A DNA stretch of 64,000 nucleotides. Source: Bacteroidaceae bacterium. GTDB taxonomy: Bacteria; Bacteroidota; Bacteroidia; Bacteroidales; Bacteroidaceae. Numbering within the stretch: position 1 is the stretch's first letter; every line of letters starts with the position of its first letter. A model generated the notes under the pieces. The model did not search any database. It was not told where the DNA came from and was given only the letters and a program-made list of their open reading frames with translations. Location: contig JAFTXN010000006.1 of the NCBI GenBank assembly GCA_017461605.1, positions 124,001-188,000 of the forward strand. Direction: 5' to 3'. Of the stretch, positions 15,007-52,452 are shown piece after piece. Position numbers and translations under genes: made by a program.

Positions 15007-15073
15007 AAAATCTGCAAGGCGTTTAGAAAATTCTGCAGTGCTTGCAGAAAATCCTAAACGCCTTGCAGATTTT
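15007..15073. repeat. Nested intergenic palindrome, copy A
   Basis: Perfect 20-bp outer arms (15007-15026 and 15054-15073) enclose an inner 7-bp hairpin, TTCTGCA (15031-15037) with TGCAGAA (15043-15049), loop GTGCT. The core is almost identical to copy C at 43240-43296; where the outer arms differ, both arms change together. Located in the 408-base spacer between the OmpA promoter and the end of mutL. The rest of that spacer shows nothing else clear. Confidence 0.88.
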
Positions 15074-23369: not shown

Positions 23370-23451
23370 TATCATTAGGGTGATAAGAAATTATCATTAT
23401 AGTGATAAGAACGTATCACTATGGTGATAAGAACGTATCATTAAGGTGATA
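23370..23451. repeat. Array of four 16-bp palindromes, 22-bp period (array 1)
   Basis: Four units of the form TATCA-N6-TGATA start at 23370, 23392, 23414 and 23436, exactly 22 bp apart, separated by AGAAAT or AGAACG. A 22-bp period is about two helical turns, so all units face the same side of the DNA. The array lies between a -7 element and the HU-like gene. An inverted, nearly identical array is at 52014-52095. It may be an operator bound cooperatively, or an RNA leader of four short hairpins. Confidence 0.92.
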
Positions 23452-23534
23452 ATATAACGAGAAGCACTGCAACAAGCACTAAGGCACAATCAAACAAATA
23501 CTTAGAAGCATTCACAAAACTTATAAGAAACAAC

Positions 23535-27002: not shown

Positions 27003-27545
27003 TTATATTTTTTTCAAATAAACGCTCACGGGATATGCCACAGCCCCCACTCTTACCCAGTCGGGCAACACCGCAACTTCCTGATAGCCTGCATGAAGGA
27101 ATAGATTCCGACAAGCATCACTGTTCACTTGCGCCACATGAGCATAGAGCATCCGGATGCGCAACATTTCTGCCGTATAACGCTCCAAAAGTTGCAATGC
27201 ACGGGCCGCATATCCTTGTCCGCGCTCAGAAGCCAACAACACCACCCCCACTTCTGCCCGAGCATGGCGCGGCTCATAGGATGTGATGTCTATCAGTCCC
27301 AAAGCCTTTTGGTCCGTTTTACGCATAATCAGCAAACGCAATTGCCTCTGCTCATAAAAATCAGCCGGCTGCGCCGCGATGTATTGTTTCAATGCATAAC
27401 GCGAATAAGGCACATCCACACATCCTTTCAGCCACAGCGATGTGTCGTTCTCAATGGTATAGAGCAGTTCCAAGTCCTCCGGTTCGAGCGCTCGCAACTT
27501 CACCACCTCATCTTCCAGATATGAAACATCGGTCAACATCTTCAT
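27003..27545 (-). CDS. GNAT-family N-acetyltransferase
   Basis: A 180-residue RimJ/RimL-like acetyltransferase expected to move an acetyl group from acetyl-CoA to an amine. Recognisable parts are VKLRALEPEDLELLY at the N-terminus, the GLIDITSYEPRHARAEVGV strand pair, the acetyl-CoA pyrophosphate loop ERGQGYAARAL (about residue 106) and the C-terminal NLFLHAGYQEV. Its ATG overlaps the TGA of the upstream glycosyltransferase (ATGA), so the genes are translationally coupled. The substrate may be a sugar or a protein terminus; not known. Confidence 0.88.
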   Translation of the reverse strand: MKMLTDVSYLEDEVVKLRALEPEDLELLYTIENDTSLWLKGCVDVPYSRYALKQYIAAQPADFYEQRQLRLLIMRKTDQKALGLIDITSYEPRHARAEVGVVLLASERGQGYAARALQLLERYTAEMLRIRMLYAHVAQVNSDACRNLFLHAGYQEVAVLPDWVRVGAVAYPVSVYLKKI

Positions 27546-28783
27546 TTACTTCGCTTTGCTTCGTAACGTTCGATGGTGCCGTCCTTGTGTTCAAACGCTT
27601 GGTCCTTAGTTATGATTACATCGGTGGCCATGTCGTAGGTTCCCAAGGTGTGTTTTCCCGCATCTTTTTGCAGAATATCCAACACACGATGCGTCGGGAA
27701 TGCTGCAAGATCGTACACCACGCAATGGTATTTTGCCACATCATTCTCCACAGACAGGTGCCCCTCCGGCAGGGTAGATGCATCACCTTCCACAAAGTCC
27801 ATCTTAAGCACCCATGCGTGTACCAACTCCTGCACTTTGCTGATGCTCTGCGCGCTACCGATGAACAGATAGCGTTTCTCGGCCATACGGCGATTGACCG
27901 ATAGGATTTTTCTGAAATCCTTGCACCACTGCCCAATGAGCGAAAGCAGTCCTTTCACCACGATGGCCAAACGAATGGGAAGCGAGACAAGCGGACTGAA
28001 ACGGTGAAAATGCTTATTGAAGAAGATTAGCATGGCATCATAGAACACATGCACATATCTGAAAGAACTGCGATGCGTACTCTCGCCCTTATAGTGAATA
28101 ATGGGAGTCGGCAGATAATAGTTGTGCAACCCGGCGAGAAGCAGTCTGTACGAAAGGTCTATATCTTCGCCATACATGAAAAAATCTTCGTCGAAGCTGC
28201 CATACTCTTCCAGGCACGACCGACGCACCATGAAGTAGGCTCCCGAAAGTATCTCAACCTGCTCGGCCTTGTTTTCGTCCAGGTAACGCATATAGTATTT
28301 TCCGAACTTACGCGAACGCGGAAACAATGAGCAAAGACCACTCATCTTGCAAAAAGCCGTCCAGGGAGTGGGCAGGCCACGGCGCGACTCAAAGGCAAAA
28401 CGCCCGTCAGCACCGAGCATCTTCACACCCAGTCCGCCCATGTCGGGATGAGCATCGGCAAATTGTAAACTGTCCTTTAGGGTGTTTTCCGTAATCAACG
28501 TGTCAGGATTCAGAAACAGCACATATTCACCGCAGGCCCGTGCCACAGCTTGATTGTTGGCACAACCAAAGCCCACATTGCGCGCATTCTGAATGAAGTG
28601 TACGTGCGGAAAATCCGATTGCGGAAAACGTGAACGCAGGTGCGGAATGGTGCTATCTTCCGAAGCATTGTCAACCACAAACACTTCGGTTGCAATTCCC
28701 TCCGCAGCTCTCAGCACAGAGCGAAGACATTGCTCCACAAAATGCTTCACGTTATAACTTACAATAATTACCGAGAGTTTCAT
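27542..28783 (-). CDS. Family 2 glycosyltransferase with C-terminal extension
   Basis: A 413-residue GT-A fold enzyme like dTDP-rhamnosyl transferases (WbbL/RfbF type). It has SVIIVSYNVKHFVEQCL, VVDNASEDS (about residue 37), NVGFGCANNQAV, the DxD-equivalent FLNPDTL (about 91) and EDFFMYGEDIDLSYR (about 195). After a hydrophobic segment near residue 270 comes an unusual tail of about 110 residues with YLFIGSAQSISKVQELV, which resembles a small nucleotide-binding fold. The ATG overlaps the previous stop by one base. It likely adds a sugar to a surface polysaccharide. Confidence 0.88.
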   Translation of the reverse strand: MKLSVIIVSYNVKHFVEQCLRSVLRAAEGIATEVFVVDNASEDSTIPHLRSRFPQSDFPHVHFIQNARNVGFGCANNQAVARACGEYVLFLNPDTLITENTLKDSLQFADAHPDMGGLGVKMLGADGRFAFESRRGLPTPWTAFCKMSGLCSLFPRSRKFGKYYMRYLDENKAEQVEILSGAYFMVRRSCLEEYGSFDEDFFMYGEDIDLSYRLLLAGLHNYYLPTPIIHYKGESTHRSSFRYVHVFYDAMLIFFNKHFHRFSPLVSLPIRLAIVVKGLLSLIGQWCKDFRKILSVNRRMAEKRYLFIGSAQSISKVQELVHAWVLKMDFVEGDASTLPEGHLSVENDVAKYHCVVYDLAAFPTHRVLDILQKDAGKHTLGTYDMATDVIITKDQAFEHKDGTIERYEAKRSK

Positions 28784-29244
28784 CACGCCTGATTTTTCGG
28801 TTCTTGCGATTGGGGAGCACGCATGGACTCAAACGTTGCCTGCGAGGGCCAACAGAAGAGAGAGGCCACGATCGTGATAAGGAAACAATAGAAGAACGTG
28901 CTACTGAAATCTGCCAAATAGTACACCAACAAGTTATACCAAATGGCAATGGCTACAAGCAGCGTCCGCACCAGGCAAAGAGTGGAATAAGTACGCAATG
29001 CCGATACCTCCTCCTGCCTCTGCACCGATTGCTTAACACTGCTGAAAGCCATCAGGCGCATCGAAACATAACTGCCAAGCAGCGTCAGCACAACGGCCAC
29101 AACCTGCAAGGCGTATGCCTGTTCAACATCCGGCTGGAAATACAATGTGGGCAGTTCTCCGCTTTCGAAAGCCAAGAACAGCAACGCCGTGATAAGCCAC
29201 ACAAAGAGATGCGTCCAACGCGGTATTTTTAGAGCTGTTTTCAT
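28783..29244 (-). CDS. Small integral membrane protein, 153 aa
   Basis: Four hydrophobic segments are visible (about residues 13-30, 45-65, 88-108 and 110-132), with a basic N-terminus (MKTALKIPRWTH) and a polar tail. I do not recognise the family. First gene of the operon with the glycosyltransferase and acetyltransferase, with overlapping stop/start junctions. Directly upstream are tandem repeated promoters (29266-29609). A role in exporting or modifying a surface glycan is inference. Confidence 0.72.
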   Translation of the reverse strand: MKTALKIPRWTHLFVWLITALLFLAFESGELPTLYFQPDVEQAYALQVVAVVLTLLGSYVSMRLMAFSSVKQSVQRQEEVSALRTYSTLCLVRTLLVAIAIWYNLLVYYLADFSSTFFYCFLITIVASLFCWPSQATFESMRAPQSQEPKNQA

Positions 29245-29265: not shown

Positions 29266-29551
29266 CAAAGTTAGTGCAAGGTGAGCGAAGTGCCAAATTT
29301 ATTTGAGCACTTCCGAGCCGCCGCCTAACTTGAACCGAACAAAGTGAGGAAAAAGTTAGTGCAAGGCGAGCGGAGGACAAAAGGAAAACTTATTTTTCTT
29401 TTTCATCCCGAGCCGCAGCCTAACTTGGGCGAAGTCAAAATTAGTGCAAGGCGAGCGAAGTGCCAAATTTATTTGAGCACTTCCGAGCCGCCGCCTAACT
29501 TGAACCGAACAAAGTAAGGAAAAAGTTAGTGCAAGGCGAGCGGAGGACAAA
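29266..29551 (-). promoter_or_regulatory. Four tandem promoters in an 85-bp repeat
   Basis: Four promoter cores occur on the minus strand at an 85-bp period: TAACTTTG (29266-29273), TAACTTTT (29351-29358), TAATTTTG (29436-29443) and TAACTTTT (29521-29528). Their TTTG -33 elements lie at 29294-29297, 29378-29381, 29464-29467 and 29548-29551, with spacers of 20, 19, 20 and 19 bases. The spacers share CGCTCGCCTTGCAC (one base changed in the first). The first core lies 22 bases before the start of the membrane-protein gene. Confidence 0.85.
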
Positions 29552-29609
29552 AGGAAAACTTGTTTTTCTTTTTCATCCCGAGCCGCAGCCTGACTTGGGC
29601 GAACCATCT
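29266..29609. repeat. Tandem repeat, four units of ~85 bp (ABAB, 170-bp period)
   Basis: Each unit carries the blocks AGGCGGCGGCTCGG (or AGGCTGCGGCTCGG) and CGCTCGCCTTGCACTAA on the minus strand. Units 1 and 3 are nearly identical, as are units 2 and 4, so the array is a duplicated 170-bp pair. The same blocks form the 86-bp repeat at 52261-52452 in the opposite orientation. The remaining 29610-29790 spacer holds nothing I can identify. Confidence 0.9.
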
Positions 29610-29794: not shown

Positions 29795-29866
29795 AAAAAC
29801 GGGAACGCCTTGCAGAAAATTCTACAAGGCGTTCCCGTTTTTCTACAAGCACTGCAGATTTTGCTA
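29795..29866. repeat. Intergenic palindrome, copy B (rearranged)
   Basis: An 18-bp perfect stem (29795-29812 with 29825-29842, loop 12) is followed by CTACAAGCACTGCAGATTTT. The second half aligns with the reverse complement of copy C at 43240-43296 (shared CAAGGCGTTC, then CAAGCACTGCAGA). It may also end transcription. Confidence 0.75.
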
Positions 29867-43239: not shown

Positions 43240-43296
43240 CTGCAAGGCGTTCTGAAAATTCTGCAGTGCTTGCAGAAAATCGAGAACGCCTTGCAG
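43240..43296. repeat. Nested intergenic palindrome, copy C
   Basis: Outer arms CTGCAAGGCGTTCT (43240-43253) and AGAACGCCTTGCAG (43283-43296) are perfectly complementary. The inner hairpin TTCTGCA (43259-43265) with TGCAGAA (43271-43277), loop GTGCT, is identical to that of copy A (15007-15073). It lies in the spacer before ftsK. Confidence 0.88.
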
Positions 43297-52013: not shown

Positions 52014-52095
52014 TATCATTAGGGTGATACGTTCTTATCACCATAATGATACGTTCTTATCACTATAATGATAATTTCTTATCACCCTAATGATA
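52014..52095. repeat. Array of four 16-bp palindromes, 22-bp period (array 2)
   Basis: Units of TATCA-N6-TGATA start at 52014, 52036, 52058 and 52080, exactly 22 bp apart. The reverse complement matches array 1 (23370-23451) in three units and their spacers with one base difference; the fourth unit is reversed. No gene follows it on the minus strand, so it has no obvious target gene. Confidence 0.92.
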
Positions 52096-52260: not shown

Positions 52261-52452
52261 CTCGCCTTGCACCCTTTTGCTTACGCCAAAGTAGGCGGCG
52301 GCTCGGCAAGAAAAACAAAAAACTCTGCATTTTGTTTTGTACTGCGCTCGCCTTGCACCCTTTTGCTTACGCCAAAGTAGGCGGCGGCTCGGCAAGAAAA
52401 ACAAAAAACTCTGCATTTTGTTTTGTCCTGCGCTCGCCTTGCACTACTTTTG
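52261..52452 (+). repeat. Tandem 86-bp promoter repeat (two copies plus partial third)
   Basis: Copies begin at 52261, 52347 and 52433. Each has CTCGCCTTGCAC, then AGGCGGCGGCTCGG and a T-rich end containing TTTTGTTTTGT. The first two cores read CACCCTTTTGC and lack the TA of a -7 box; the partial third reads CACTACTTTTGC and completes a promoter. The same family forms the array at 29266-29609 in the opposite orientation. Confidence 0.9.
52422..52452 (+). promoter_or_regulatory. Consensus promoter of the ThiE-like gene
   Basis: TTTG (52422-52425)-N19-TACTTTTG (52445-52452), a perfect match. It is assembled from the end of one 86-bp repeat and the start of the next. The start codon is 31 bases downstream. 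Confidence 0.85.

What the first reader, a model, noticed from the sequence alone, without database searches (positions are those of the whole stretch)
29266..29609. An 85-bp repeat unit that carries a complete consensus promoter, iterated four times
Four promoter cores on the minus strand are spaced 85 bp apart with TTTG-N19/20-TAnnTTTK. The spacers are conserved (CGCTCGCCTTGCAC), not only the boxes. All face the operon of membrane protein, glycosyltransferase and acetyltransferase. The array is a duplicated 170-bp ABAB pair. It looks like a portable promoter cassette that can multiply in tandem and so tune expression, perhaps of a surface glycan. Repeat and box positions are seen; expression effect is inferred.
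Basis: partly seen in the sequence, partly recalled or inferred. Interest (0 to 1): 0.8.

Follow-up and report, generated by a model that had tools for sequence, protein, structure and literature searches.

The report
Dispersed hairpin repeats that dock at promoters
This repeat belongs to a large family of DNA hairpins that sit flush against the start signal of dozens of genes in some gut bacteria, seem to supply half of each promoter, and have one arm that matches the local start signal, which hints at an undescribed way for promoter pieces to spread.

Summary
The array is real: four units in ABAB order upstream of a membrane-protein/glycosyltransferase/acetyltransferase operon. It belongs to a dispersed family: 140 near-exact copies of one block in the own 2.06-Mb genome (control 2), in some 70 arrays; 93 of 301 sampled genomes of the GTDB family carry the motif. 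Arrays end at a TAnnTTTG -7 box shortly before a start codon, often of a housekeeping gene. Stems carry TTTG 19-20 nt before it (131 of 206). The -7 is intact in 61 of 67 terminal but 12 of 87 interior units (here 2 of 4): a portable promoter half, not a stack of promoters, and not glycan-specific. Units fold into a long imperfect hairpin (64 double-change cells; shuffles 19 +/- 3) whose far arm matches the local -7 bases; mispairs and loops point to the template strand as the selected fold. Between two related species stems and unit numbers turn over while the -7 site stays. Within one genus no Y1 transposase, reverse transcriptase or integron integrase tracks the family. How it spreads, and how the arm comes to match the host box, is open; transcription was not tested.

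The parts
29266..29609 (-). four-unit array (ABAB), promoter side at 29266
29266..29332 (+). gene-proximal hairpin unit (template strand)
   Evidence: covariance model R1, 70.2 bits; DNA fold z -4.4, coding strand -3.6
29351..29427 (+). second hairpin unit (template strand)
   Evidence: R1 83.3 bits; DNA fold z -2.85, coding strand -2.4
29436..29502 (+). third hairpin unit
   Evidence: R1 70.5 bits
29521..29597 (+). fourth (distal) hairpin unit
   Evidence: R1 80.9 bits
29266..29273 (-). terminal -7 box TAACTTTG; its variable bases are complementary to those of the far arm CAAGTTA
   Evidence: sequence; row L099
29294..29297 (-). -33-like TTTG, 20 nt before the terminal -7 box
   Evidence: sequence; position rule
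29274..29285 (-). gene-side box CTCACCTTGCAC of unit 1 (others at 29359-29370, 29444-29455, 29529-29540 read CTCGCCTTGCAC)
29313..29326 (-). far-side box AGGCGGCGGCTCGG of unit 1 (others at 29408-29421, 29483-29496, 29578-29591)
29351..29358 (-). interior -7-like box TAACTTTT (not consensus); the same at 29521-29528
   Evidence: sequence
29436..29443 (-). interior -7 box TAATTTTG (consensus)
   Evidence: sequence
28783..29244 (-). downstream ORF, 153 aa, ATG 21 nt after the -7 box
   Evidence: Pfam scan covered 28783-29232 only, no family
27542..28786 (-). glycosyltransferase family 2
   Evidence: PF00535 2.4e-22
27003..27545 (-). GNAT acetyltransferase
   Evidence: PF13302 1.8e-14
52261..52452 (+). 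second array of the same family, ending in TACTTTTG (52445-52452); TTTG at 52422-52425
52373..52452 (-). hairpin unit of the second array (template strand); the other is at 52287-52365
   Evidence: R1 82.1 and 61.2 bits
52484..53092 (+). gene behind the second array: thiamine monophosphate synthase-like
   Evidence: PF02581 2.7e-15

Best explanation
The 85-bp unit is one copy of a family of interspersed DNA hairpins, found in many Bacteroidales, that dock directly upstream of the host's -7 promoter box. Seen in the sequences: the gene-side arm carries the upstream half of a sigma-ABfr-type promoter (TTTG, 19-20 nt, then the host's TAnnTTTG); the far arm is complementary to it, including the variable bases of the local -7 box; noncanonical features (one bulged base, an AA/GCn loop, a GA/GA pair of mismatches) are conserved; pairing errors and loops favour the fold of the template strand; stems are shared among loci and replaced between related species. 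Inferred: the family spreads as a non-autonomous, single-strand-hairpin element, by an unidentified enzyme or by hairpin-driven template switching. New units are placed at the 5' edge of the -7 box, so the gene keeps a working promoter because the unit brings its own -33 region. Tandem arrays record repeated additions at that spot, and only the last unit normally acts as the promoter.
For: Copies: block 1, 140 vs 2 in the reversed control; block 2, 100 vs 1. Position: -7 intact in 61/67 terminal and 12/87 interior own units; TTTG at spacing 19 or 20 in 131 of 206 distinct stems, 0 at 18 and 21. Hairpin: 96.0% of cells paired, 64 double-change cells (500 shuffles: 19.0 +/- 3.2; slid structures 5-13), covariation score 0.309 vs 0.092; of 400 arm-column pairs ranked with no structure assumed, the six highest are nested pairs of this fold (173 units). 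Far arm vs -7 bases: 57 of 72 own, 116 of 134 mainly from other genomes (2000 shuffles: mean 46, maximum 60). Template strand: mispairs A.C 82 vs G.T 13 on the coding strand; 183 of 206 units fold better on the template strand, 21 worse, DNA energies; GNA triloops 33 of 48 on the template strand, 0 of 48 on the other. Mobility: in the own genome, units with similar stems in different arrays share the far-arm bases in 28% of pairs, units with different stems in one array in 69%; orthologous promoters in G312 keep the -7 site but differ in stems and unit number; 0 to 122 motifs among 58 genomes of one genus.
Against: No mobilising enzyme found: Y1 transposase (PF01797) in 8/16 motif-rich and 20/42 other genomes, reverse transcriptase in 3/16 and 15/42. 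No target duplication and no single-unit insertion against a near-identical empty site was obtained. Fifteen of 72 own units do not match the -7 bases. In G312 the 'stems travel, bases stay' contrast is not seen: 50% for similar stems between arrays and 44% for different stems within one (106 and 9 pairs). One covariation measure is not striking: 7 pairs with double changes, shuffles 5.6, 56 of 500 as high. ORF starts within 120 nt follow 68 of 71 arrays but also 43 of 71 control positions. Transcription start sites were not tested.
Confidence: 0.55

Rival explanations
1. A resident regulatory structure: the template-strand hairpin extrudes from supercoiled DNA and pre-melts or marks the promoter (as in phage N4 or single-strand promoters, the latter recalled). 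The far arm co-varies with the -7 box because the whole hairpin is under selection at each gene.
For: Template-strand fold bias and GNA loops; the pairing reaches into the -7 box; four promoters whose -7 bases differ between the two species have matching arms in both (L131, L141, L144 plus strand, L153; seen part). N4 early promoters need a template-strand hairpin with comparable loop rules (passages of PMC4496689).
Against: Patchy copy number inside one genus, with 21 of 58 genomes lacking the motif, and orthologous ychF genes with a plain -7 box and no array (14 of 30 loci). Interior far arms also match the terminal -7 bases (41/56) although most interior -7 boxes are lost.
Confidence: 0.25
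2. No dedicated element: tandem duplication plus ectopic gene conversion or template switching between the short boxes reshuffles hairpin promoters within a genome.
For: Within an array, units with different stems share the same gene-side box in 55% of pairs against 28% between arrays (own; G312 67% and 27%, 9 pairs within); an unusual TTGCGC box stands in both copies in L128 and in the array-less G312 counterpart. It would explain locus-matched arms with foreign stems.
Against: It does not explain first units at new promoters, nor why the same boxes, fold and docking recur in many genera with very uneven copy number. The one array-free G312 counterpart seen (first array of L132) shares no obvious upstream sequence, so it decides nothing.
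Confidence: 0.12
3. One reading: an amplifiable stack of complete promoters that tunes a surface-glycan operon by copy number.
For: Array structure and orientation; two of four units here have the full consensus; at least five of 71 arrays precede glycan-type genes by reading.
Against: Interior -7 boxes are mostly defective (12/87 intact) and many downstream genes are housekeeping.
Confidence: 0.05
4. The conserved fold belongs to an RNA made from the template-side strand (antisense or retro-mobile RNA).
For: Covariation with G.U-type pairs; with RNA energies too the whole unit folds better on that strand in 179 of 206.
Against: Upstream genes lie in both orientations (36 and 27, 8 unassigned, rough ORF rule); stem strand bias is stronger with DNA than RNA energies (184:15 vs 133:71); reverse transcriptase not found in 13 of 16 rich, partly incomplete genomes; only tRNAs in the window reach Rfam thresholds.
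Confidence: 0.03

Closest known systems
REP / BIME / REPIN palindromes with RAYT (TnpA_REP)
   Same: High-copy intergenic imperfect hairpins, with a bulge in one group and a conserved motif before the hairpin (abstract of PMC8266576), often clustered
   Different: Docked at -7 boxes; outer arm varies with the locus; no constant GTAG/CGTC tag; no flanking RAYT found; carries a promoter half
Integron attC sites (description recalled)
   Same: Bottom-strand hairpin with variable stem, conserved mispaired positions and an extra-helical base
   Different: No integron integrase over cut-off in 58 genomes; no cassette genes; no fixed GTT core; units abut
Phage N4 early promoters (template-strand hairpin)
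   Same: Hairpin on the template strand, with G and A loop bases and the closing pair important (passages of PMC4496689)
   Different: Much larger hairpin, cellular genes, docks on a sigma-ABfr -7 box; extrusion and polymerase not examined here
BrickBuilt MITE of Porphyromonas gingivalis
   Same: Bacteroidales intergenic tandem-repeat element with promoter activity (abstract of PMC4596501)
   Different: 23-nt units inside an inverted-repeat element, 19 copies in one strain; a hairpin including the host -7 box is not mentioned in the abstract
Mobile promoters of prokaryotes (recalled; the phrase 'putative mobile promoters' found 0 papers)
   Same: Homologous promoter sequence upstream of unrelated genes
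   Different: Here only the upstream half seems to move and the -7 box stays with the host

Membership tests
REP/REPtron | High-copy intergenic imperfect palindromes | tested here: met
REP/REPtron | Constant GTAG or CGTC tag at the hairpin foot | tested here: not met
   foot on the template strand is CAAAnnTA with variable nn
REP/REPtron | Cognate tnpA_REP gene flanked by the repeats | tested here: not met
   R1 (E <= 1) finds no hairpin beside the Y1 gene in 12 loci (10 genes; four genes from motif-rich genomes); its two hits in L365 are the typA array about 2.5 kb away. Y1 not found in 8 of 16 rich genomes. Other Y1 genes of these genomes were not examined
Integron attC | Integron integrase in the genome | tested here: not met
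   0 of 58 genomes over the TIGR02249 cut-off; 57 of 58 have weaker matches, as expected of other tyrosine recombinases (genomes partly incomplete)
Integron attC | GTTRRRY / RYYYAAC core sites and gene cassettes (recalled) | tested here: not met
   core bases vary (GATAGTG, GGTAGTG); units abut at about 84-86 bp
Integron attC | Bottom-strand hairpin with extra-helical base | tested here: met
sigma-ABfr promoter (Bacteroidetes) | TAnnTTTG at -7 and TTTG near -33 | tested here: met
   terminal units, as sequence only; consensus from passages of PMC7366714
N4-type hairpin promoter | Extruded template-strand hairpin recognised by the polymerase | not testable with these tools
   fold and loop bias only
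MITE | Terminal inverted repeats with target-site duplication | tested here: inconclusive
   inverted arms present; 41 of 87 own interior junctions lack the TA of a second -7 box, 46 keep TA, 12 of these with a full box; no close empty-site pair

The most novel reading that the evidence does not exclude
A chromosomal hairpin-promoter system: mobile DNA hairpins that build one arm to match the -7 box they land on, so that the template strand of dozens of promoters can fold from the -33 region into the start site. This would be a structured promoter used by the cellular polymerase and a mobile element that writes its host's start signal into itself.
Probability: 0.25. Interest if true: 0.92.

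Novelty: new variant of a known kind. Interest (0 to 1): 0.76.

Why it matters
If right, a short hairpin has repeatedly taken over the upstream half of promoters, housekeeping ones among them, in gut Bacteroidales without breaking them, and its sequence carries a copy of the local start signal. That gives a direct handle on how palindromic repeats choose promoters, whether DNA structure acts in ordinary bacterial promoters, and how promoters are exchanged inside a genome. It also means that promoter regions in these mostly uncultured lineages evolve by exchange of modules.

Tried and rejected
RAYT/IS200-type partner: PF01797 in 28 of 58 genus genomes (26 over cut-off), no association with motif richness (8/16 vs 20/42). 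Beside the Y1 genes of the own genome and G184 other repeated stretches are seen; loose box matches occur near all four genes read, but no R1 hairpin flanks them. A script meant to classify Y1 motifs matched nothing.

Reverse transcriptase as mover: 3/16 rich vs 15/42 others. Integron: 0 of 58 over cut-off. Plasmid or phage carriage: no match in 72,556 plasmid records; four faecal 'Bacteriophage sp.' records in the phage set, the one opened being marked UNVERIFIED and without annotation; the only viral-contig hit (L305) lies inside a 960-aa ORF and looks like chance.

Pre-existing palindromic target: of 30 ychF loci fetched (58 genomes searched), 6 have arrays, 14 have a -7 box within 90 nt and no array, none of these with the palindromic left side, 9 have neither, and one (L310) was flagged as an array by a loose match that reading one search does not support.

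Known RNA family: only tRNAs in the window. Class-wide search with R1: 3 of 198 genomes, all in the own family, but with strict filters and at most 24 candidates scored per genome, so absence is weak.

Caveats on counts. One search listed only 100 of its 140 places. The set (169 motifs, 136 with a far arm, 134 counted) includes L163 of the own genome, several loci per genome, and loci whose contig lengths coincide with those of G312. In one search only the own-genome contrast is free of selection by the terminal motif. G312 stretches were chosen around known arrays. The output was cut in the middle; statements on it rest on the part seen. The 35 units were picked by me from the 60 printed of 106 available, all with near-consensus boxes and TAnnTTTG, which favours pairing. 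Richness counts were copied by hand; reversed-pattern controls are 0 or 1 per genome. The ORF control is weak (43 of 71).

Full report
Observation. The four-unit ABAB array at 29266-29609 is real. All four units have TTTG 19-20 nt before a TAnnTTTK box on the minus strand, but only two have the full Bacteroidetes consensus TAnnTTTG. The consensus (TAnnTTTG at -7, TTTG near -33) is quoted from passages of PMC7366714. A second array of the same family lies at 52261-52452, ahead of a thiamine phosphate synthase-like gene.

Family. In the own genome (2,062,558 bases, 81% complete) the block GCTCGCCTTGCAC occurs 140 times with at most one mismatch (reversed control 2) and AGGCNGCGGCTCGG 100 times (control 1). 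The 200 places listed by the two calls fall in 78 clusters, some of them single boxes. Successive units are mostly 84-86 bp apart, or 73-74 with the short stem. In a draw of 301 genomes of the GTDB family, 93 have CTCGCCTTGCACTAnnTTTG with at most one mismatch, in 18 of 30 genera, with no match of the reversed pattern in the rows shown. Within one genus of 58 genomes the count of a slightly wider motif runs from 0 (21 genomes) to 122, the own genome.

Docking at promoters. In the own genome, where loci were fetched by the blocks and not by the -7 box, 61 of 67 terminal units are followed by TAnnTTTG, against 12 of 87 interior units; in G312 stretches it is 35 of 37 and 5 of 32. Of 71 arrays, 68 have an ORF of at least 70 aa starting within 120 nt, 2 to 87 nt after the box; the control is weak, since 43 of 71 other positions pass too. 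By my reading of the translations, with no family search, the genes include ychF, dnaG, topA, recA, typA, proS, leuS and argS, and at least five arrays precede glycan-type genes. Across 206 distinct stems TTTG occurs at spacing 19 (84) or 20 (47), none at 18 or 21, and 28 at 24. So the unit carries what looks like the upstream half of a promoter and uses the -7 box that follows.

Hairpin. Ranking all 400 pairs of far-arm and gene-side-arm columns by corrected mutual information, with no structure assumed, in 173 distinct units, the six best pairs are nested Watson-Crick pairs of one hairpin. On an alignment of 35 units with the structure stated, 96.0% of cells pair, 64 cells have changes on both sides (500 shuffles: 19.0 +/- 3.2, none as high) and sliding the structure drops pairing to 33-44%; the number of pairs with double changes, 7, is less striking (shuffles 5.6, 56 of 500 as high). 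The 35 were picked from 106 units with near-consensus boxes. The far arm matches the two variable bases of the -7 box in 57 of 72 own units and in 116 of 134 units mainly from other genomes (2000 shuffles: mean 46, maximum 60). Between the own genome and G312, four promoters of matching genes seen have different -7 bases (L131, L141, L144 plus strand, L153), and the far arm matches locally in all eight cases.

Which strand. On the coding strand the stems contain 82 A.C and 13 G.T mispairs, which is the reverse on the template strand. With DNA energies 183 of 206 units fold better on the template strand and 21 worse; with RNA energies 179 and 27. Of 67 small hairpins between units, those with triloops have GNA on the template strand in 33 of 48 cases and never on the coding strand; GNNA tetraloops 12 of 18 against 1. 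The units are related, so these are not independent tests. In phage N4 early promoters the template-strand hairpin also depends on its closing pair and on loop G and A (passages of PMC4496689). Upstream genes lie in both orientations (36 and 27, 8 unassigned, by a rough ORF rule), so one consistent antisense transcript is unlikely.

Turnover. At the orthologous promoters seen the 600 nt downstream are 72-92% identical (one 80-nt match 99%); the -7 site is usually kept, while stems are often replaced and unit numbers differ. One own array (L132, first) has no counterpart in G312, where a plain TAACTTTG stands. In the own genome, units with similar stems in different arrays share far-arm bases in 28% of pairs, whereas units with different stems in one array share them in 69% (different stems, different arrays 19%); in G312 these figures are 50%, 44% (9 pairs) and 16%. 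In the own genome, then, stems travel between loci and the -7-matching bases stay; in G312 the contrast is not seen. At ychF, 14 of 30 genus loci have an ordinary -7 box 24-54 nt from the start codon and no array, none with a palindromic left side, which speaks against the matching arm being a remnant of the target.

Mechanism. The observed features (docking, promoter half, template-strand hairpin, turnover, locus-matched arm) are best joined by a mobile hairpin that adds units at the 5' edge of the -7 box. In 24 of 87 own interior junctions TTGCAC is followed directly by ACTTTSGC (41 of 87 lack TA), as expected if a new unit enters exactly before TAnnTTTG; 46 others keep TA, so this is not the only junction type. 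How the arm acquires the local bases is inferred only: fold-back copying at insertion, copying from the resident unit with a switch into a foreign stem, or selection afterwards. Searches for an enzyme were negative.

Novelty. Text searches for Bacteroidetes promoters with repeats (26), mobile promoters (27, 59), Bacteroidales REPs (37), Prevotella tandem repeats (38), the block sequences (58; one unrelated wheat paper) and REPIN/RAYT in Bacteroidetes (80) showed no description of this family in the listings; those of 38 and 59 were cut (25 of 58 and 12 of 3,743 papers listed), and the library lacks most subscription papers. PMC6006769 (passages) mentions Bacteroidetes TnpA_REP genes of subclass 2.6 flanked by atypical secondary structures; the figure is not held, so a relation cannot be excluded. 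The four Y1 proteins read have a QKEHH- or QAEHH-type tyrosine motif, like the one given there for subclass 1.2. CGTC-tagged repeats are reported for Bacteroidetes too (passage of PMC3733652).

Noticed in passing
window 29843-29858, 15032-15047, 43260-43275: A second dispersed palindromic repeat around CTACAAGCACTGCAGA (3 matches with up to 2 mismatches, 0.02 expected); similar stretches lie upstream of many arrays and look terminator-like.
   Followed up: partly
window 23370-23452 and 52025-52095: Two tandem arrays of a 22-bp unit of similar sequence (TATCATTATGGTGATAAGAAAG / TGATACGTTCTTATCACCATAA); the second lies about 165 bp before the second hairpin array.
   Followed up: no
L142 and L150: Divergent promoters that appear to share one central stem with gene-side arms on both sides, so that one palindrome would serve two start sites.
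   Followed up: no
L365 and L367: Y1 transposase-like genes with their own repeated stretches alongside, different from the hairpin family.
   Followed up: partly
L368, just upstream of the Y1 gene: In G099 the Y1 gene is preceded by TTGCACTACCTTTG, the end of the gene-side arm plus a -7 box, but without a hairpin unit.
   Followed up: no
L102, L142, L150: Near-identical start regions of a protein rich in KPKPKP repeats stand behind three different arrays.
   Followed up: no
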